DNA from: Romanomermis culicivorax
Taxonomy: Eukaryota > Nematoda > Enoplea > Mermithida > Mermithidae
Direction: 5' to 3'
DNA: 64,000 bases
NCBI GenBank assembly: GCA_963922205.1
Contig: CAWUHX010000065.1
Span: 372,001-436,000, forward strand
The translations under genes and the position numbers were made by a program. Positions 52,134 through 64,000 of the stretch are shown here, piece after piece. The notes under the pieces were generated by a model that was given only the letters and a program-made list of their open reading frames with translations, did no database searches and was not told where the DNA came from. The first letter of the stretch is position 1. Each line of letters opens with the position of its first letter.

Positions 52134-55100
52134 ATGTTTGAGGATTGCCCCATGTCGCCATCCAGCGACCACTTACCACCTTTACCCATGTTGAAAGGCG
52201 GCGGTCAGCAACAGCAGCGCCGACTGCAACGCAAATTCACTATCGAACAAGAACACGCGGGCGCCTACTTTTTCCAGGAACAAAAGCTCAAAAGTCAGCC
52301 GGACGCCACTCAACTGGAACATCTATGCAATTTGCGTATCGACGAGCCTTTACATTTCGTACGAAAAACTGGCCTGATTTGTACATTGGGTAACTTACTC
52401 TGCGCTGTGAAATCATAACTGCGAAAATGGTTGAAATAATGCTCTTTTGTTATGCCAATTTCTCAATTATAATATATTTTTCCTTACAGGTCCTGCTTCC
52501 AGAAGCGTCGAAATGGTTGAACAACTAATTTTGAACGGCATGAATATAGCACGACTTAATTTTTCGCATGGTTCTCACGAAGTAAGAATACTTATAAGTT
52601 TTGTAATAACATAAACGGAAGAGTTCCGATGAGTTGGGGGCAGACTGCCCCATATGGAGTAGTACGAGAGGGTATTACCCCTACATAAAGTCATGAAAAT
52701 TCGTCACTGAATCCTCATTTGGAGACAAAATGGAGTGTTTAGTGAACATTGCGCTACATTATCCCGCAAATTTTCAACTTCACCCTACCTAAAAAATCTG
52801 ACCTTGGGGACTTCTGTTTGGAAAGTACCAAAATTTCCAAATTTGTGGTATGCTCCCAAAAGTCCCTAAAAAGGCGAAAATTTTCCCAAAATAAACAGAA
52901 AAGTGTTGCTTTTTTCCTAAATTTTTCGAGTTGGGGAGTCTCTACATTTAGATATACGATTCGACCAAATTGGGGATCCCATCCCAGCCCCCGCCCCCAA
53001 TTGCAAGTACTTATGTAATAAGCTTAACGTTTTTGCTCAAAAATTCTTAATCTAAGCATTTATTTGTCTTGCATATCTTTATTCAGTATCATGGCGAAAC
53101 TATCGCAAATATCAGAGCCGCTGTAAGCAGCTTTACCTCGCCGCCTCGGGTGGTCGCCATAGCTTTAGACACTAAGGGTCCCGAAATTCGTACCGGCGTT
53201 TGGGCTGCGGTAATGGAAAAATAAGTTTTAGGTTCTTTTTTAGTTTATTAAAATCGATCACTTAAAAACAATTCAGGGTGTCAACGCCGAACATGAACTA
53301 AAAAAGGGCGAAAAAATTAGTCTTACGACGGACGATAATTTCAAAACTTCTTGTACATCCGTTCATATATACGTCGATTATAAGAATATTACGAAAGTGG
53401 TGAAAACTGGCTCTAAAATTTATATCGACGACGGTTTGATCTCATTAGAAGTTTTGTCTATTGGTGAGTTAAGAGTTAGTTCTCTTTTGTTCGACTATCC
53501 TCCTACAAATTCAAAACTCCCAAATTTTGCGGCTTTGACATATAAAAATCTTGACTTGACGTTGTTCATCGATATCCGTTTCAAAGTCAAAGCTTGTTCT
53601 CATGCGTGACTTTTTTCTTAATTCTAGAAAACGATCGTTTGGTATGCGAAGTCGAAAATGGTGGCCTTTTGGGTAGCAAAAAAGGTGTCAACTTACCGGG
53701 CACTTCAGTCGATTTACCGGCCGTTTCTTCCAAAGATATCGAAGATTTGAAATTTGGCGTTGAACAACAAGTGCGTTTTACATATAAGAACAAATTTGAT
53801 GAATTTTTTCCAACTTTCCTCTTTTACTAGGTCGATATTATTTTCGCTTCGTTTATTCGTAACGCTGATGGTGTTCGAACTATCCGTCAAGTTTTGGGAG
53901 AACAAGGAAAACATATTAAGATTATTTCGAAGATTGAAAATCATGAGGGCATTGAAAAGTGAGAAATTTGTATAGAATCAATTTTTTTGGGTTTCAATTT
54001 AATTTTTTGATACCAAATTTAAATTTTCATTATTCAATTTTTGTTTTAGTATCGATGAAATAATCAAAGAATCGGACGGTATAATGGTCGCTCGCGGTGA
54101 TTTGGGAATAGAAATTCCGGCTGAAAAAGTATTTTTAGCCCAAAAAATGATGATTGCCAAATGTAATCAAGCCGGTAAACCCGTCATCTGCGCCACTCAA
54201 ATGTTAGAATCGATGATCAAAAAGCCGCGCCCGACTCGGGCGGAAGGTTCGGACGTGGCCAACGCTGTTTTGGACGGGGCCGATTGCGTAATGTTGTCCG
54301 GCGAAACGGCCAAAGGAGATTATCCGCTAGAAACCGTGCAAATGATGCACAACGTGAGAAAATGTTCATTTTTAAAATTCATTCCACGTTATTATTCATT
54401 TTTGTATGCATAGATTTGCCGCGAAGCCGAATCGGCTATTTATCACGTGAAATACTTCGAGGAAATTCAACGTTTGACGATGAAACCGATGTCAGCGGCG
54501 CAAACTATCGCCGTGGCGGCTACTTCGGCGGCCGTTTCGTGCCACGCCTCGGCAATCGTGTTGACCACAACGACGGGAAAGTAAGCTGTTTTTTCGCTCT
54601 TAATGTTGAGGTTTTATCATCAATTTAAATTAACAGAACAGCAGGCTTGATATCGAAATTTCGACCTCCGTGCCCAATTTTGTGCGTGACGCGCGATCCG
54701 CAAGTCGCTCGTCAATTGCACTTGTTCCGCGGAGTTTTCCCAATTTTGTATCCGTGTAAGTTTTTTGTTGTGGAGAAATGTTTAAAAACTGAATTTACCA
54801 TAAAAGACTTGAAATTTTCGTCAAGAGTGATGAACTTGATTTATTTTCTGTAGTTCCTTTCGAAGACGAAGAGGAAAACTGCGGTAATGATGGTGTTTTT
54901 CCAATACACTTGTCCTCGAGGCTGATTCTCACGCTTTTATACGTGATTTTTGTTGCGTGGAGTCATTTGAAGTGTGTCTCGCAACCTCATGCTTTTAAAT
55001 TCTGAAAAAATCTTCACTAAATGCATTTTAACATACATGTTCCGGCTATCCCCAACTAGAAAAATTTCTGAATTGAACGATTCATAACTAGTAAGTTCGT

Positions 55101-56770
55101 TGCTATGCTTCTTTTTTGTTCATCGGGAAAAAATTTTTTGTCCAAATCTATTTTCACGTGTTATTTTCTTATGATATATATATATATATTTACGTCTTTT
55201 ATATGAAAAAATTATACAGTATTTACAAATGCAGCTTCTCATTTTCTCACAGAATAAGGCTTGAAAAATTTGTATTCTCGCTGTTTCACGGTTGAACAAA
55301 TAGTTCCTTTTTCAAATCGAGATCATACCTGTAAATTTTTGCAAAAGGTAAAACAACAGCCAAATACTGATACTTATTCAATATTGCTAGGAGACGTTTT
55401 TTAAAACTTTGCTTGGAGCATTGAAAAGCGTTTTCTGACCCGGAAATTTTAGAAACTCTTTTCGAACTTTGCATGAAAATCTCTAGAAAATCTTTTTATA
55501 TTGACAAAAGTGTTCATTTTCTGTCATTTTGAAAATATTGTCTTCAATTTTCCGATATATTTCGATACGCACAACAATGAACCTTTTGTCAAAATTCTTC
55601 TGCAGAATTTAATAGTAAAACTGATCTAATTAGAAAGGACAATGTGTGAAATTTTTCTCTAGTATTTTCATACTCTATTATTTTTCTTGAAATGCTTTCA
55701 AATGTCAACAGGAAAACTAGTACTTCTACGATTTCCTGCAGAACTACATATTGTCATATTAGGACTTGGTACCTGAAATTTGTCTGCGTACTCAACTTAT
55801 CCTCATCATTTTTTTGGTATTTTTTTGTAAAAACTTCGCGTCAATGATTCTGACACCAATTATGATTTTTTTCATTTTCCGATTTACAAGCATTTTATAA
55901 AAAACAAACTATAGAAAAATTTGGAATGCTGTTCCAGATTTTTCAAGACTGAAAATAGATACATAAATATCATCAGGGCCGTGCGCAGGATTTTTTCATG
56001 AGGGGGCGGACTACATTTTTTACTGAATAGCCCCAGAAAATTTTGATTTTACGCGATACACTGTGTGCAGTCTGCCTCAATGGGGGGGGGGGGGGGCGTT
56101 TCCCGCCTCCCCCCTTGTGCACGGCGCACTTGTGCCATGTATAGCATCAATTTTTCAGAAGCTGAAAAAGGAGATAATGATTTTCTAAAGGCCTTCATTA
56201 GAGCTTTGCTTGCTGAGACGTCATTATCCGCTCTCATACATTTTAATGGCAGGGCTATAAGTGCCCACTAGAAATCGTTGGCTATGTGGCGACTCTTCAA
56301 GATTTACCAATTGTATGTCTGAAATGAAAAATTTCAGTTCTTAGCAGAAGATGTCATTTCTGAATAGAACGTGGTCACTAATTTATTTTTTTCGACGCTT
56401 TGTGCTATAAATACGTCTTTTATGCTTTTTATGCAGACCGTTTTTGGATTTATAAGAAAGAAAATCGCATTTCCCATTCATAAAAAGTCTCTTCACACCA
56501 CTCCCAGACCCCCGAGCTCCGTTACGTGTATGTCCACTCCTTATGCATGATATGCATATTCCGTTATATCCGCCGTAAAAAATGTTTGCGGAATTTTTAG
56601 CTGATCGCGACGCCGATTGGTCGACGGACGTGGACAATCGTATACAGTATACGGTCGATTTGGCCAAAAGTCGCGGTTTCGTACGTTCGGCCGATACGTT
56701 GATCGTCGTTACGGGCTGGCGCAAAGGCGCCGGTTCGACTAACACGTTGCGCATCATGATCGCCGACTAA
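52134..56770 (+). CDS. Pyruvate kinase
   Basis: Cytosolic glycolytic enzyme converting phosphoenolpyruvate and ADP to pyruvate and ATP. Eleven exons: 52134-52389, 52490-52581, 53087-53209, 53277-53463, 53628-53770, 53831-53958, 54050-54353, 54414-54580, 54637-54755, 54854-54883, 56601-56770; phases all fit, giving 572 residues. N-terminal domain: [13 protein letters not shown] (phosphate loop) and [14 protein letters not shown] domain inserted after [11 protein letters not shown]. Catalytic lysine 301 in [10 protein letters not shown]; metal and substrate loop [21 protein letters not shown] and [32 protein letters not shown]-domain ends [16 protein letters not shown] 70-residue extension with a glutamine run precedes the core; ATG 52152 is an alternative start. 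Intron 10 (1.7 kb) and intron 2 carry transposons. No frameshifts. Confidence 0.94.
52600..53015. repeat. Family C / family A-like repeat in pyruvate kinase intron 2
   Basis: About 52635-52830 is the reverse complement of 5690-5900 (GGGTATTACCCCTAC, CAAAATGGAGTGTTTAGTG, CACCCTACCTAAAAA). It is followed by family A-like text (TTTTTCGAGTTGGGG, TTCGACCAAATTGGGG, TGCAAGTACTTATG). Boundaries are approximate. Confidence 0.55.
54884..56600. other. Pyruvate kinase intron 10 with family D and B remnants
   Basis: Donor GTAATG follows the 30-base micro-exon; the acceptor GGAATTTTTAG precedes the last exon. 55976-56125 is a decayed family D MITE (CAGGGCCGTGCGCAGG ... TTGTGCACGGCGC). About 56255-56541 is a family B relic ending GAGCTCCGTTACGTGTATG. 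An (AT) run lies at 55166-55188. About 55000-55900 holds nothing recognised. Confidence 0.6.
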
Positions 56771-57150: not shown

Positions 57151-58134
57151 ACTTTGGCAAAAAACTTGCTATGCTCGGTCTTATAAATGTAATGATGATG
57201 ATGCTTATTGAAGTCAGAAAGCGGTAGGCATCTGAGTGTTTTGAAAATTTTAAATTTCCTTCATAGGTGTCCGGTTCTATAAGTAGTTTATATAAAATGT
57301 TTATGAATAAAAAATGACAAAACAGTATTGCCCTCGATGTAGTTTACACAAAGTTTCTACTAAATAACTTTATTTACAAATGATGAAAGTTACTTGGAGC
57401 AATGTTAAAAATGTAAAGCTACATCGGTTCTCTATATCGTTCGGTCTGATAAAGCTTCAAGGAGCTCAAAGAACTGTGCGCAAAAAAGGTGTGAATAGAA
57501 ATACTGGTAAAATTCCATAATGTTTAGGTCCAGTTTATGCCGACAGGGTGCCCTGAATGAAACGCTAATAATTTTTTCTCCAAGCAAAAACTTGAGCTGC
57601 CGCTTTGTGCAGTTTTTTGTTTTACATCATTTTGGTCGAAGAAAATTTACTATGAGAAATTGAGTGTAGTGATAGAACTAAAAAGAAAAAGGAAAAATTA
57701 ATTAGAAACGAAACAACGAAAGCAGTATAAGTAGAAAAGGTAAGCAAAAAAAATAATGAGAAAATTTTTCATTTTAGAAAAAAAATCTTCATTGCTGTCC
57801 TGAACAATTGAAATTTTTTTGTCCCAAACTCTGTACACTCCGAGGATTTACTCTTTTGGATACTCGCCCGTTTGAGAGTCGCTCTCGGGGGACACATCCT
57901 TGCATCTCCCAAACGGCAAATCTGATTGAAAATATATATATGTAATGTTTTAAACTAAACAGCTGAACCATCTTGATTGACTTTTGATAGATGTTTTTTT
58001 CTTCTCGCTTTTGATGTATCAGTTTCATCAAATGAACAAATACTTCATTATGAAAAGTTTTAGCCATTGAAGAGTTGTCTTTCATGGTACATATGTATTG
58101 GGATGAACATCGACCATATGCTGTGTTTGCCATC
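57151..58134. other. Intergenic, nothing recognised
   Basis: AT-rich, with no coding or repeat signal identified between the pyruvate kinase 3' end and the LTR element. Confidence 0.4.
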
Positions 58135-59041
58135 TGTAACGTACCTGCTAAAGCAGTACTGTAAATATATAGCATACTGTATGTGATAGACATTTATTAA
58201 ATATTATTTCATTTTCGTATTTTATCATCTCAAGGGTGTTTGGGATTCACACCCAAACATTCCTACAAAATTACTTGAAGTACTTTATTTTGATCCGTTC
58301 ACACCCCGGTAGCCCAATTAAGATGCCCCAATTAATTTGCACAAACAGCAGCTGGTCCCCTAGAACCTACACTATACTACACATTCCACGGCTACCATAA
58401 TCCCCCATAAAAATCGTAAACAACACCTGCACACAGTAAAATAAGTAAAAGCCCCGCCAGGCAGTAGTCTCAAGTGCAACGGTAGCGACAGCCCCACAAA
58501 ACATGTGTATTCAGAGAAACAGATACAGGAAGCATGCACAGAAGCACAGAGGTGTGGCTAAGCCCACCATAGGAAGCAAGCAATACACGAAAAGCATACC
58601 ATACTAGAAAAGTGTTAAAAGGCATGACTAAGTAAGCATAAAAAGCAAAGCAGGAAGCAAGGATTGGCCGAAGAAGATGGACAGAAGCACGACCCCTCGC
58701 GACGCCCAGGGAGTGGCCAAAAACATAGTATAAAAAGAGAAGCAAAGTGTGATCTTATTATTATTGGTGATTATTGAATTCTTCGTTTTTGAAACCGCGC
58801 TCATCTCGTTTTATATTTGCAAGCAGCCATTTTTACGACAGCAGTTAAACCGAAGCCCGTTCGTTATTTGCAAGCCGAGACCGCGTTCTTTTGTTGTTTG
58901 TTGTCGACGTCTCAAAGCAGCTGTCGATTAGTATCCATATTGCCCCTGTATTGTCAAATCGCCCCTCTCCCCCCGCCCCGTTTCGTTGCTGTAACGTCCA
59001 TTAGGTTAAAGTAAAGTCCTTCACAAAATCTGGTTGTTACA
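58135..59041 (+). repeat. 5' long terminal repeat
   Basis: Bounded by TGTAAC and GTTACA, a 6-base terminal inverted repeat with the usual TG...CA ends. A TATA box (TATAAAAAG, 58729-58737) places the R start near 58760. The right boundary is supported by a primer-binding site five bases downstream. The left boundary is less sure: TGTTTGGGATT at 58237 is an alternative. The 3' LTR lies outside the window, so neither could be checked. Confidence 0.6.
58729..58737 (+). promoter_or_regulatory. TATA box of the LTR promoter
   Basis: TATAAAAAG lies within the LTR about 310 bases before its right end, consistent with a U3/R/U5 layout. Confidence 0.5.
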
Positions 59042-59046
59042 TATTT

Positions 59047-59060
59047 TGGTGACTGTACCA
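59047..59060 (+). other. Primer-binding site
   Basis: TGGTGACTGTACC begins five bases after the LTR end. The TGG start complements the CCA end of a tRNA, and TGGTGAC matches the opening of known tryptophan-tRNA-type primer sites; the match fades after seven bases. Confidence 0.55.
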
Positions 59061-59283
59061 TACCATTAACCACTGGAACTCCCTGCCCCAATTAGGTGTA
59101 TTCTTATCAGGGCATCTCGAAGCATTAGATAATACAGTAGTAATCATTTCCTACAGTAAGACAGTATTCATAGAAAGCAAACTGGAAATCCCCTCCAACG
59201 AAACATTAAGCAATACATTTTCACGAATACAGCATGAAGCAAAAATTGAAGCAATTAAGCACAAATCCCAGTGTAAACCAAGA

Positions 59284-60824
59284 ATGACCCACCAAATGCA
59301 TGATCATTTAGGAGAAATTGTTAGAGAACAGATAAACGATTTATTTTCTGAACATTTTCGTACTCTACGCACACAATTGAACCAGAATACAGTAAACCCT
59401 ACCCTGATAGATGATCTAAGAACAGCAAACATTCGTAATAACATGGCAAATAATTTTTACACGACACCTACAGTATTCACTGGCGGCATGACCCAACATT
59501 TTGGTGAATGGAACAAATGTTTAGAACAATTCATGGCACTCCAAGGCATGAAAGATACAGACGTACAGTTAAAGTTGGCATGTTTAGAGATTCATTTAGG
59601 AGGAGCCACGTTAGCAAAATTCAAAAGTTTAGCCAATTCCGAAAACCCTCCCCACACATACGAGCAGTATAAAGTCGCATTACAGGCCTTTTTCCCAAAC
59701 AATCGAGATAATGAGCTACATCAACAATTTTTACGCAAGAGAAAACAGAAACAGTCACTGAATTCTTGTTTGATCTAGAACACCTCGCAACCCTCGCTTA
59801 CCCTAACTTTAGCACAGATGCACGAGAAATGATCATAAAACCCCTCTTTATAGAAGGCATGCAAAATGAAATCAGGGAAGCAATTAAGTATAGACGGTTC
59901 GCAACTCTAAAAGAAATGTCAGACGAAGCAGCTTACATTGAACAACAAATCCTTAGAAATGAGTTGAAGTCTAACGCCCTTCCCTTTATATCCCCAAAAC
60001 CAGAATCCATCTTTTCCCTAACCAAAAATACAGACCAACAGGACCTTTTGCATCAATTAGAACAACAAGTAAAAGATTTACAGTTGCAGATCAAACAAAA
60101 GCCCCAACCCCCACAACAGAGTAGCTACAACAATTTCAGTAACAACACTTACAGTAGGAATAATGCTTATGGGAACAATACTACCCCTATGCAACCCACA
60201 TGCTTTCAGTGTGGACAACTTGGACATGTAGCTCTTAATTGTAAATCAATAGGCACCTGAAAATCATGTGAAATCTGTTTTCATAATAATCACATTACAC
60301 GTGATTGTAAAAGCCAGTGCATTCACTGCTCCCAAACAAGACATAGATGTGATAACTGCCTTTTGAGCAAGCAGAGAGGTCATACAAGCAGGTACTGTCC
60401 AAATCAACAAAGTCGTAATATTCAAAATTGCATTGAGTACAGGCAGCCCCAACCCCTCATGGACATTGATGACCCCACATTTTACTCAACATTACCCGCC
60501 ATAACTATTGGCCCTCAGACTACTTTAGGAACTATCATGCCCAACACCCACCGCCGTAGTCAGGAGGAGTATGTCCTCGACCTGGACGTACCCGATTGGT
60601 GGGCCATGTCATCACCTCCCACGCCCAAATCAGCCAAAGTCGAAAAATCGCCACCCACCATCCCGGCAGGCTACAAGATTCCCCGAAAACAAGACACCAA
60701 GTCACCCACCACCCCCGTAACTCCATTGAAAACAGGTCGCAACTTGTTGTCCCTTCTCCAGGGCCTGACCCCCGAACCCTACCAATCCGCCCCGCCAAAC
60801 ACTGCTACCGACCCCCACAAGTAA
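59284..60824 (+). pseudogene. gag: gag (capsid and zinc knuckles), broken
   Basis: The structural protein of the retroelement particle. The first frame (59284-59778) carries a capsid-type region: FTGGMTQHFGEWNKCLEQF, then LACLEIHLGGATLAKFKS and YKVALQAFFP. Between about 59731 and 59765 the homology passes to the next frame, with TEFLFDLEHLATLAYPN, so one base is lost or gained. Zinc knuckles follow: CFQCGQLGHVALNC, CEICFHNNHITRDC, CIHCSQTRHRCDNC and a looser fourth. A TGA at 60258-60260 lies between the first and second. A proline/serine/threonine-rich tail runs to TAA at 60822-60824. The frame is open upstream of the ATG back to 59053, so the start is uncertain. Confidence 0.8.
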
Positions 60825-60826
60825 GC
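60821..60826 (+). promoter_or_regulatory. Splice-donor-like site overlapping the gag stop
   Basis: The bases CAA|GTAAGC overlap the gag stop codon (AAG TAA). Acceptor-like tracts AAGTTTTACAG and ACTGTTCAG lie at 60860-60878, before the envelope start at 60987. Splicing here could help make an envelope message or drop the gag stop. This is pattern only. Confidence 0.3.
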
Positions 60827-60986
60827 AAATCCAAACCCCATCCCATGACTCAACTTCTAAAGTTTTACAGACTGTTCAGATTACAAACCTGCCACCCCCC
60901 CCCAGCTCAAAACCACAAAACACCAACGGCCACGCCAAACCGGCCGGAACGAAAATATACAATGCCCCGCTGCCTCCAATAACACA

Positions 60987-62840
60987 TTGTATTGGCTGAT
61001 CTTTTGTATATCTTTATGTATAATAATCCCCACATCCTGTAGTGCCCAATTTCAGATCTGTGGAACTTCATTGAGTGGTCACTCAGTCAGCATACCAAAA
61101 CTCGTATCATGCATGCCCCCTTCCACAGTAGACAAACCCGTACAGACATTCGGAAAAATCTATATCCCCTCCACTAAACCTCACATAACGGATGCATACA
61201 AATGCAGTGTTCACAAATGCAAAATTTGTACTAATACAGGATTTTTTTGGCTCAAAAGGTATTGTCTTCGACCAAACCGAAATGCAAAATCTAACCCCAC
61301 ATGTTTGTAAGGCAATCGTTATAGACGAAGAACACAAGGGTCAAAAATTATATGAAACTCAACCAGGATTTTGGTCGACAAACAACTCCCTAAGTGTAGA
61401 ATACACATGGTGTTGTACAGATCATTGTACGTCGGTCACTAACGTCATCATAGAAATAGGACAAATAGCATCTTGGAATGGAAAATCTATGACAGGTACA
61501 TTAGGTGACCTGGGGTCATGCAAACTGACATCCGGTCATTGTGTAACAGCCGACGGATCCATTATCTGGAATGAAACAGCATTCGAAAACTTATGCTCTT
61601 TCGAATACAAAAATACACATCCCATCAAACTCATGCAAACCCACATGATAATAGAAGAGCTACAAGGTGCATTTTCTGTTAAAAATACACTCTTTTCGAA
61701 CCCCAACTGCCCAGAAACTCAAGACAGCGTCCTAACTGAACAGGGCATTGTTGTCCAGCTAGATAAAAGCACCCCACATCAAAACACATTTTTAACCCCG
61801 AAAACCAACGAAACTCATACTACACTCTACGATTTTGACGATTTTGAACCGATTAACGCGAAACTAAATTATCTAGCAGACAAAATCCAGGAATTCGAAA
61901 TTCAAAATTTCAAAAACGTATGGAGTGAATTATGCAGACAGGCACAGCGTCACCTTGATCTCGTATGGCAAATTTTGCGCCTTGATGCAACCCTTGGAGC
62001 CCGTGCATTCCTACAGCGAACTGACATAATAGCAGAATTCACAGGAGAAGCCCTCACCGTCTGGCCCTGTAAACAAGTAAACGCATCTAAAGTCTTCTAC
62101 AACCATAAAATCAACCAAACATGCTACAAACTTTTACCCATTCTCATAGGAACCGAACTCATGTTTTCGAACCCAGGAGGCAACGATTTGACCCCTTTTT
62201 CACAAATTGTTGACTGCCATCACATGCATGTAGCCCTCTACAAACAGAATAATACATGGGTCAGTGAAACAGGATCTCCGCATGTCACAAATTTACCTTT
62301 AGAAATCGTCTGGAACCAAAATTTCTCCCTTTTCCATTTTAACACACCTGCAATTTTTCATGATCAACTTGCAACTATTTCAACCAACTTACTCTTTTTG
62401 AAACAATACATTTACAAAACTCACACACTCGAAAACGTTGTTAAAAAACTCGTCAATTACACCGCCCAAATGTCCCTTAACTCAGATACAGTTTACAATA
62501 TGATCTCAGGCACTGGCCGAGCAATCGGAAATACCCTCTCTGGCGCCGGTCAAGGCATAGAACATGTAATAACCAGTACCACCCAAAGTCTCACAGACGA
62601 ATTAAACAATTTACTCAAAGGACCCCTGCAAATCTAGCCGTTATTACTGTAGTTATTACAGGGGTCTTTTATTCTTTTCTCATTCTTCGAAAATATATCC
62701 CTTCTCCCAAGCATCATGCCACAAATGAACATGCATACAAAATACCATCACACAACAGACATTTACATGAGACCATTCCACCATCATTGGGCCATGCTCT
62801 CTTAGAATTAGCTAATCGTCGCAGGGCACAAACACAGTAG
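60987..62840 (+). pseudogene. env: Envelope-like glycoprotein, located between gag and pro-pol, broken
   Basis: Likely a membrane fusion glycoprotein. The first segment (60987 to about 61245, frame 0) opens with a hydrophobic signal peptide followed by several cysteines. At a run of seven T near 61242-61248 the homology moves to frame 1, which continues to 62637. That part is rich in cysteines and N-glycosylation sites, with WCCTDHC and GSCKLTSGHC-type clusters. Its end is glycine/serine/threonine-rich and helical-looking. Near 62610-62637 a second shift returns to frame 0, which supplies a strongly hydrophobic membrane segment (about 62635-62690), a basic stop-transfer and a tail of about 50 residues ending at TAG 62838-62840. 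Cysteine spacing faintly recalls class III glycoproteins of chu-/rhabdo-like viruses; that assignment is weak. Confidence 0.65.
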
Positions 62841-63509
62841 AAAAACGTCCTTGTCAATATTGATACCCCCCAAACTCCTGCAATCGAACTCATTAATCAA
62901 ATTCACCAATCTGGATCAAACAAGCCACCCCAAAATGTACCTGAGAAACATACCCCTCATATTTTAATCACACTTAACGGCAAATTAATTACAAAAAGCA
63001 TGATTGACACTGGTGCCCTATACTCACTCATTGATTCACGGATCGCTCAAATTTTACAGTTAGACATGAAACCCCCGCTAGTCCAAGCCAAAGCAGCAAA
63101 TAATCTCCCGATTCACTTTGTAGGAACCACTTTTGTCACAGTAACAGCCCAAACAATCCAGGAAACAATAATGGTCCATGTCCAAAAAGATTGCACGGCA
63201 GATGTCCTTCTAGGCAAAAGCTTTCTCTGTCAATTTTCGGAATACACTATCAACAGCCAGAAGTCACAAGTCAAATTTGGCAATGTCATACTACCTTGTG
63301 ATGGCCTGGAATATAGCCCCCTTTTGACCTGTGGTGGAACCTACTTGGATGAGAAACTAGAATTACCACCCCCTACAGTCACCGAATTTACTGTCCCCTT
63401 GCCCAAATCGTACCTACAAGTTAAACAGCTTGAATTTACTCCGAAACCCAAACAGAATGCCAAAGTTCATTTTGCAGCTTGTGTTTCTGAAAACCAAATA
63501 GTCGCATAG
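62841..63509 (+). pseudogene. pro: Aspartic protease (retropepsin) of the pol region
   Basis: Processes the element's polyproteins. In frame 0, directly after the envelope tail's TAG, comes a linker and then MIDTGALYSLID with the DTGA active site (63003-63014). The flap region and ADVLLGKSFL, the conserved hydrophobic-hydrophobic-GKxFL motif, follow. The frame stops at 63507-63509. Protease and envelope tail share one frame separated only by one TAG. No ATG lies at the linker start. Confidence 0.8.
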
Positions 63510-64000
63510 GCATCTCGGCCTTAAACACACAAGACACGGCCCAAACTCTTTACCCTGGAACATGCATTGGTACAGTCTCATGTTACATCCCAAAACAAGA
63601 CTCTCCCGCTAAACTAACCCCCTCGATGCAAAACCAGCCAAACCGTTTTGATACATTCACATGGTTAAAAGAAAATGTTAACTTAACCTCCAGTGACCTG
63701 ACAGAAGCAGAAAAAACGCAACTCCTGCGCGCCCTATCGAAGTACCCTACATTATATGCTAAATCCAAAATGGACGTAGGTAGAACCACCCTTGTTTCTT
63801 ATACAATTGACACCAATGGCTCCCAACCCGTACGCAGGCACCTTTATCGGCCTTCCCGAAAAGAAAAGCAAATCATACAAGCAGAAGTTGAGCAACTCGC
63901 AGCAGCTGGTGTCATAAGCCAGAGCAATTCTCCATGGTGTACCAACACAGTTTTAGTCCCCAAAAAAGGAAGAGGCCATTGTTTATGCATTGATTTTAGA
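63509..64000 (+). pseudogene. pol: Reverse transcriptase N-terminus (Ty3/gypsy type), runs off the window
   Basis: Frame 2 stays open from about 63509 to the last base. It gives a linker, then HLYRPSRKEKQIIQ, VEQLAAAGVISQSNSPWCTN and VLVPKKGRGHCLCIDFR. The order 'basic-Y-R-x-P...GVI-x-x-S-x-SPW...VLV-x-KK...IDFR' is the classic opening of Ty3/gypsy reverse transcriptases. A frame change near 63500 separates it from protease. The catalytic YxDD motif, RNase H and integrase lie beyond the window. Confidence 0.85.

What the first reader, a model, noticed from the sequence alone, without database searches (positions are those of the whole stretch)
58135..64000. LTR retroelement with gag-env-pol gene order
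Seen: an envelope-like frame with signal peptide, glycosylated cysteine-rich body, membrane anchor and tail (60987-62840) lies after gag (ends 60824) and before the DTGA protease (63003) and Ty3/gypsy reverse transcriptase (63509 on). Known: in retroviruses, errantiviruses and env-bearing BEL or gypsy elements, env follows pol. Inference: this lineage acquired its glycoprotein separately, by insertion between gag and pol, and must have its own way of expressing pol. It may be an undescribed element architecture.
Basis: partly seen in the sequence, partly recalled or inferred. Interest (0 to 1): 0.9.

Follow-up and report, generated by a model that had tools for sequence, protein, structure and literature searches.

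The report
Retroelement with envelope inside its polyprotein
A virus-like jumping element in a worm-like genome carries its membrane-fusion protein in the middle of one long protein, between its shell protein and its copying enzymes, where retroviruses carry it at the end; one earlier case is published, in flatworms.

Summary
The order is real. The window holds the first two thirds of one Ty3/gypsy insertion of 9,271 bp, LTR-gag-env-PR-RT-RH-IN-LTR, with LTRs 96.0% identical (870 of 906 sites), a 4-bp target duplication and nothing env-like found after integrase. Env is of the class III fusogen kind (Monjiviricetes_fusion, 1.2e-18). The window copy is decayed. In the same genome 49 of 89 scored env matches lie in one open frame of at least 2,440 codons; for one copy both ends of a 2,486-codon frame were read, with gag, env and integrase in one phase. 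A second family has all parts in one frame of 2,194 codons and near-identical LTRs; a third, picked by its RH-IN tree, has the same order. So pol is the C-terminal part of a Gag-Env-Pol polyprotein. Elsewhere, a Gag-Env protein and a C. remanei Env-protease model agree. Not wholly new: planarian Burro elements were reported in 2019 with env in frame between gag and pol. I rate it a new variant: compact, in nematodes, with a chuvirus/bornavirus-like fusogen.

The parts
58131..58134 (.). left copy of 4-bp target-site duplication CATC (right copy at L001:3406-3409)
   Evidence: flanks read
58135..59041 (+). 5' LTR, TGTAAC...GTTACA; 3' LTR is L001:2499-3405 (= 66499-67405 if window numbering is continued)
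   Evidence: 870 of 906 aligned sites identical, K2P 0.041
59047..59059 (+). putative primer binding site TGGTGACTGTACC (tRNA not identified)
   Evidence: sequence; position 5 nt after the LTR
59284..60824 (+). gag: capsid region and CCHC knuckle; broken by a frame change near 59770 and an in-frame stop at 60258
   Evidence: Retrotrans_gag E 0.0024 (below cut-off) and zf-CCHC 1.9e-4; stops; dN/dS 0.10-0.30 against three copies
60861..61247 (+). linker and env N-terminal part; hydrophobic signal-like segment about 60984-61040, then cysteine-rich start; no in-frame ATG
   Evidence: 34% over 88 aa to the Gag-Env protein P0005
61222..62634 (+). env ectodomain (in the 481-aa ORF from 61192), class III fusogen kind
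   Evidence: Monjiviricetes_fusion 1.2e-18; 38% over 469 aa to P0005; 89 scored matches in own genome; dN/dS 0.14, 0.06, 0.31
62637..62840 (+). env transmembrane anchor and cytoplasmic tail, ended by a TAG that is not a stop at that place in the C82, C38 and C105 copies
62841..63509 (+). retroviral-type aspartic protease in the same frame as the env tail
   Evidence: gag-asp_proteas 2.3e-6
63626..64000 (+). start of reverse transcriptase; RT, RNase H and integrase continue in L001:1-2275 (64001-66275 if numbering is continued)
   Evidence: PDB matches are retroviral and Ty3 Pol, best E 2.7e-4; no Pfam match for this piece alone; for the rest

Best explanation
It is a decayed copy of a multi-copy, env-bearing Ty3/gypsy LTR retroelement, probably of a mermithid nematode, whose genomic RNA encodes one Gag-Env-PR-RT-RH-IN polyprotein. 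Shown: the order within paired LTRs; one open frame through these parts in other copies; a hydrophobic signal-like segment before Env and a membrane anchor between Env and protease; purifying selection on env. Inferred: Gag is made in the cytosol, the internal signal sends Env into the ER lumen, signal peptidase frees Gag from Env, the anchor stops transfer, and PR-RT-RH-IN emerge back in the cytosol on Env's tail, where the protease cuts them free. That is the topological logic of a flavivirus polyprotein (capsid, internal signal, envelope, anchor, enzymes; recalled). Env then would let particles leave and enter cells, for example soma to germ line. The env gene was probably inserted once, in the ancestor of the three families seen here.
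For: Complete insertion with TSD and no env found after IN. Env family match. No stop at the gag-env junction in C82 and C56 or at the env-PR junction in C82 and C38. Of 89 scored env matches, 49 sit in an open frame of at least 2,440 codons, 17 of them exactly 2,486. In the C95 copy the bounding stops give 2,486 codons, the first ATG is the start of the gag match, and gag, env and integrase pieces are in one phase. Family B (C72): one frame of 2,194 codons from ATG; domains confirmed piece by piece; 371-bp LTR alignment with no mismatch and two gaps, GTAG on both flanks. Family C (C102), picked from the RH-IN tree, then found to have gag-env-PR-RT. Hydrophobic segments: C72 has one before env and one before PR; 0 of 6 other gypsy loci of this genome (of about three families) have any upstream of PR. 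P0005 (Gag-Env, one protein) and P0010 (C. remanei Env-TM-protease). dN/dS of the env ectodomain in the range of gag and PR.
Against: No RNA or protein data: translation, membrane topology and cleavage are inferred. Spliced mRNAs for Gag-Pol or Env alone cannot be excluded. The window copy itself could not make the polyprotein. Among decayed copies the frames do not all agree: in C38 gag is in another phase than env-PR-RT-RH, and in C56 the env-PR junction is broken. Both frame ends were read in one window-family copy (C95) and one family-B copy (C72); the other long frames rest on the tool's frame lengths, and 40 of 89 env matches lie in shorter frames. In the RH-IN tree L019 is a long branch, joins family B at only 83/80, and the tool warned of long branches meeting.
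Confidence: 0.85

Rival explanations
1. The window is a rearranged junction of two elements, for example a gypsy gag fused to a BEL-type env and another pol.
For: An env relative seems to follow BEL/Pao integrase: P0002 starts with a DUF5641-like stretch (E 0.015, below cut-off) and is 35% identical to the window env. The window copy is broken by frameshifts.
Against: Matching LTRs and TSD around one insertion; same order in other window-family insertions and two further families; long common frame; shared strand composition across gag, env and pol.
Confidence: 0.01
2. Env lies in frame between gag and pol but is mainly expressed from a spliced RNA, and Gag-Pol from another RNA with env removed as an intron.
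For: Nematode Cer1 makes a spliced mRNA from its retroelement RNA (passages of PMC10309623). P0010 is a gene model that may include introns.
Against: Splicing is not needed: the frame is open from gag through integrase in whole copies; an intron would not have to keep an open coding frame.
Confidence: 0.12
3. Env no longer serves entry; it is kept as a membrane anchor that tethers Gag and Pol for assembly inside the cell.
For: Env is fused to both neighbours, so it could act as an assembly anchor; no infectivity data exist.
Against: The ectodomain with its cysteines and glycosylation sites is kept and evolves under purifying selection.
Confidence: 0.15

Closest known systems
Burro giant gypsy-like elements of planarians (Arkhipova and Yushenova 2019, PMC6431247, section 7 read)
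   Same: Gag with CCHC, env in frame between gag and protease, one long polyprotein, gypsy-type pol, LTRs
   Different: Burro exceeds 30 kb with a 4,873-aa ORF1, further domains such as BCL2, BIR and ankyrin, and a dUTPase-like motif between PR and RT; here about 7.7-9.3 kb with about 2,200-2,400 residues and none of these domains found by Pfam in the seven C72 pieces (E up to 0.01). Burro's env is described as matching gypsy Env and mononegavirus fusion glycoproteins; whether it is homologous to this env was not tested.
Errantivirus and other env-bearing Metaviridae
   Same: LTRs, gag, PR-RT-RH-IN, acquired env; a 2026 paper mentions type III fusion glycoproteins in mosquito gypsy elements (PMC13172572, passages)
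   Different: env lies downstream of integrase (ICTV profile, whole text); here upstream of PR
Anakin and similar BEL/Pao elements with chuvirus-type glycoprotein (PMC7642597 and PMC10084718, passages)
   Same: same broad kind of glycoprotein (Jingchuvirales/Monjiviricetes), by Pfam family only
   Different: BEL/Pao pol, env after pol (for P0002 by sequence); the 2023 paper reports no clear capture of this glycoprotein by Gypsy elements
Atlas virus of hookworm (PMC9094657, passages)
   Same: nematode, single polyprotein including Env
   Different: order Gag-Pol-Env, BEL/Pao pol, phlebovirus-like class II Env

Membership tests
Metaviridae (Ty3/gypsy) | LTRs with short TSD, PBS and polypurine tract | tested here: met
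   (LTRs, CATC, GGAAGGAGGGAAA before 3' LTR); PBS by position only, tRNA not identified
Metaviridae (Ty3/gypsy) | pol order PR-RT-RH-IN with gypsy/retrovirus-type RT and RNase H | tested here: met
Metaviridae (Ty3/gypsy) | env, where present, downstream of integrase (ICTV profile) | tested here: not met
Errantivirus | env as third gene after pol | tested here: not met
Burro-type gag-env-pol polyprotein elements | env in frame between gag and protease | tested here: met
Burro-type gag-env-pol polyprotein elements | giant size and BCL2, BIR, ankyrin, MATH and dUTPase-like domains | tested here: not met
   element 9,271 bp; no such Pfam match in 7 pieces of the C72 frame
Burro-type gag-env-pol polyprotein elements | common descent with Burro pol and env | not tested
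   no Burro sequence was compared
BEL/Pao with chuvirus-type env (Anakin kind) | BEL/Pao pol with env after it | tested here: not met
   RT/RH/IN match gypsy-type families RT_RNaseH and Integrase_H2C2; env before PR
Class III fusion glycoprotein, Monjiviricetes type | sequence match to the curated family above cut-off | tested here: met
   PF24664 66.9 bits against cut-off 27; C72 env 46.6 bits; a short C102 piece only 14.4 bits, below cut-off
Class III fusion glycoprotein, Monjiviricetes type | class III fold | not testable with these tools

The most novel reading that the evidence does not exclude
A recently active, high-copy retrovirus-like lineage that makes Gag, Env and Pol as one membrane-threading polyprotein with Env in the middle, a flavivirus-like layout in a reverse-transcribing element, present in distant nematodes (this genome, C. 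remanei) and reached independently of, or shared anciently with, planarian Burro elements.
Probability: 0.6. Interest if true: 0.75.

Novelty: new variant of a known kind. Interest (0 to 1): 0.62.

Why it matters
Env position is treated as fixed in Metaviridae (ICTV: downstream of integrase). Here the fusogen is in the middle of the polyprotein in three families of one genome, with many open copies of one. It suggests that a retroelement can pass its polyprotein through a membrane and back, ties Gag, Env and Pol in a 1:1:1 product unless processed or spliced, and gives a compact system in which to ask how such elements assemble and spread. It also shows a chuvirus/bornavirus-type glycoprotein in a gypsy lineage of a nematode; the 2023 survey saw no clear capture by Gypsy, though a 2026 paper mentions type III glycoproteins in mosquito gypsy elements.

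Tried and rejected
Rejected: junction artefact (LTR/TSD and other copies); UAG readthrough as the way to pol (the TAG at 62838 is not a stop at that place in the C82, C38 and C105 copies, so it is decay, not a signal); a splice donor at the gag end (considered by eye only; not needed). Led nowhere: viral-contig scans with window env, PR and P0005 (no relatives); PDB by sequence with env (no hits); paper searches for 'gag-env-pol' (0 papers) and for 'inserted between gag' and the like (0 papers with four of six terms). The key prior paper stood's listing and was read. Chary and Hayashi 2025 (eLife 108449), which may describe similar elements, is not held and was not read.

Errors of mine: the envM query was out of phase (it held X at stops); its identities there are void and replaced; the other pieces of those calls stand. 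In one search INb and INc of C38 hit another element (45% and 26%) and are dropped, and RHIN of C38 there is a 76-codon fragment. In one search the RT row was out of phase and gave nothing.
Full report
What is in the window. The finding covers 58135-64000. There is an LTR at 58135-59041, then gag, then an env-like stretch, then an aspartic protease and the start of a reverse transcriptase. The window copy is decayed: gag changes frame near 59770 and has a stop at 60258; env lies in two frames; a TAG separates the env tail from the protease, which is otherwise in the same frame; RT is in a third frame. The window is G000:C65:372001-436000 of an unnamed 359-Mb genome in 595 contigs. The next bases, L001, hold the rest: RT, RNase H, integrase and a 3' LTR at L001:2499-3405. 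The two LTRs agree at 870 of 906 aligned sites (K2P 0.041), and CATC stands on both outer flanks. The element is 9,271 bp. Between the last integrase piece and the 3' LTR there are about 220 nt, whose open piece has no Pfam match. So this is one insertion with env between gag and pol and none found after pol.

What env is. The 481-aa open piece matches Pfam Monjiviricetes_fusion at 1.2e-18 (66.9 bits, cut-off 27) and Glycoprotein_B weakly (0.0039, below its cut-off): the class III fusogen kind known from chuviruses and relatives. It found two database proteins at first: P0001 of Romanomermis culicivorax (53% over 286 aa) and P0002 (35% over 487 columns). P0002 begins with a stretch like DUF5641 (E 0.015, below cut-off), which I know as the end of BEL/Pao integrase (recalled), so there env seems to follow pol. 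A protease piece also matched R. culicivorax (77% over 31 aa). Host: probably a mermithid nematode, inferred from these hits; the moderate identities speak for a relative rather than that species. Not proven.

Relatives outside this genome. A profile search gave 8 proteins, one of them the query row P0002. P0005 (1,056 aa, from an ENA contig, organism not shown) has Retrotrans_gag (1.5e-5), a weak CCHC match (0.0063), a hydrophobic segment and the fusogen (7.6e-19) in one protein; P0010 (C. remanei CRE_13773, 707 aa, a gene model) has the fusogen (1.7e-9), a membrane segment and a protease (4.1e-6, 0.5 bits under its cut-off) in one protein. Together they repeat gag-env and env-PR.

Other copies in this genome. 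From the 150 RT places scored (of 8,699 candidates) I fetched 20 stretches. Eight of the 20 matched no piece (L011-L015, L017, L018, L020); eight were other gypsy families with no env match in the fetched stretch (L002-L005, L007-L010); L006, L016, L019 and L021, and a fragment at the edge of L004, led to copies of the kind described here. Wherever their gag-PR stretch was fetched, env stood in it, except in two truncated tandem units (below). With corrected queries the window family (A) has the order gag-env-PR in the window, C82, C38 near 114 kb and C56 (where about 5 kb of other sequence interrupts gag); one search added C38 near 746 kb. In C82 gag, env and PR share one phase from 3106 to 7500 of L023 with one stop; in C38 env, PR, RT and RNase H share one phase with two stops, both in RT, while gag is in another phase; in C56 the gag-env junction is open but the env-PR junction is broken. 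When the env search was at last answered, it scored 89 matches of 4,389 candidates (a lower bound). The window copy is one; the 88 others are 93-96% identical, one with an internal stop. 49 of 89 lie in an open frame of at least 2,440 codons, 31 in 1,200-2,439 and 9 in fewer than 1,200; 17 have exactly 2,486. I read both ends for C95: the bounding stops give exactly 2,486 codons, the first ATG is the start of the gag match, and the gag and integrase matches are in the phase of env. In C105 gag, env tail, PR and integrase pieces share the env phase too; its upstream stop lay outside the piece.

Second and third families. Family B at C72 (L006, minus strand) has gag, env, PR, RT, RNase H and integrase in one open frame of 2,199 codons, 2,194 from the first ATG, with the domains found in separate pieces. 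Its LTR alignment of 371 columns has no mismatch and two gaps and GTAG stands on both flanks. Its env is 37% and its RT pieces 32% and 40% identical to family A. C405 and C198 copies show the same order over 3.6 kb. At C293 three units stand in tandem, one with the full order and two lacking gag and the start of env. A tree of the RNase H-integrase piece (13 rows) put families A and B and L019 (C102) in one clade (100/100) apart from 8 rows of other gypsy families; the program warned of long branches. I therefore fetched the stretch before L019: it has gag, env, PR and RT in this order, a third family, itself decayed. Its place beside family B is weak (83/80).

Selection and ancestry of env. 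Nei-Gojobori dN/dS of the env ectodomain against C82, C38 and C56 is 0.14, 0.06 and 0.31 (the last over 317 codons of a broken piece); gagA 0.16, 0.13, 0.16; PR 0.17, 0.12, 0.18; the env N-terminal part is higher, 0.42, 0.37, 0.47 (which lists all pieces; two rows dropped as told). So env was kept as a protein while the family spread. In an 11-row env tree the rows of gag-env-pol order and the four rows taken as BEL type separate (97/100); only P0002 of those four shows BEL sequence, and P0010 is a very long branch. The tree has no root, so the direction of capture is open. Gag, env and pol share an A- and C-rich plus strand unlike the flank, which fits long common residence.

How it most likely works. 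Shown: one frame, an internal hydrophobic segment before Env, an anchor before PR. In the C72 element these are the only segments over my hydropathy cut-off in the gag, env and PR pieces, and 0 of 6 other gypsy loci of this genome have any upstream of PR. Inferred: Gag stays in the cytosol, Env is threaded into the ER, the anchor stops it, and PR-RT-RH-IN fold in the cytosol on Env's tail, freed by the protease; signal peptidase parts Gag from Env. This resembles the capsid-envelope-enzyme order of flaviviruses (recalled). How Gag is made in excess, if it is, is unknown; partial processing or splicing could do it.

What is known. The ICTV profile places env downstream of integrase (whole text). 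Anakin BEL/Pao elements carry a chuvirus-type glycoprotein, and a 2023 survey saw no clear capture by Gypsy (passages); a 2026 paper mentions type III glycoproteins in mosquito gypsy elements (passages). Atlas virus is one Gag-Pol-Env polyprotein (passages). [quoted passage not shown] So the layout has a precedent. New here, as far as my ten paper searches show, are a compact form without Burro's extra domains, nematode hosts, and a Monjiviricetes-type fusogen inside a gypsy polyprotein. Chary and Hayashi 2025 could change this; it is not held.

Limits. No expression data; no structure prediction; the env-based census cannot find copies without env, and the gag- and RNase H-integrase-based searches did not complete.

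Noticed in passing
L027-L029 (C293:386500-413000): Three family-B units stand in tandem about 7.45 kb apart (places); two lack gag and the first part of env, one has the full order. Perhaps LTR-LTR recombination or a tandem array.
   Followed up: partly
L016:1843-7012: The C56 copy of the window family has about 5 kb of other sequence, with an RT match, inside gag: a nested insertion.
   Followed up: partly
L002, L003, L004, L005, L007, L008: Other gypsy-type loci of this genome have single open frames of 2,011-2,340 codons with 759-1,016 residues upstream of the protease and no membrane segment; the pieces of L002, L004 and L008 scanned matched no Pfam gag family.
   Followed up: partly
L003:8140-10000, L007:1-1954, L008:8347-10000: Open frames of 551-651 codons at the edge of the stretch downstream of pol; L003 and L007 scanned, no Pfam match below 0.03. 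They could be the next element's gag or an extra gene.
   Followed up: no
window:50011-50046 and 55974-56009: 36-nt inverted repeat, 94% complementary, 5.9 kb apart, around an ORF at 54084-54413 that looks like pyruvate kinase (recalled, not searched).
   Followed up: no
P0002, P0004, P0006, P0007: A sister group of env proteins; P0002 starts with a BEL/Pao integrase-like end, so BEL and gypsy lineages seem to share this glycoprotein kind with different gene orders.
   Followed up: partly
window:58135-64000 and L001:1-2500: Plus-strand A and C bias (GC skew mostly about -0.2 to -0.3 in the coding part), absent from the left flank.
   Followed up: partly
window:60264-60824: Gag has further cysteine and histidine motifs after the CCHC knuckle, seen by eye; also the fastest-changing gag part (dN/dS 0.25-0.30).
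   Followed up: no
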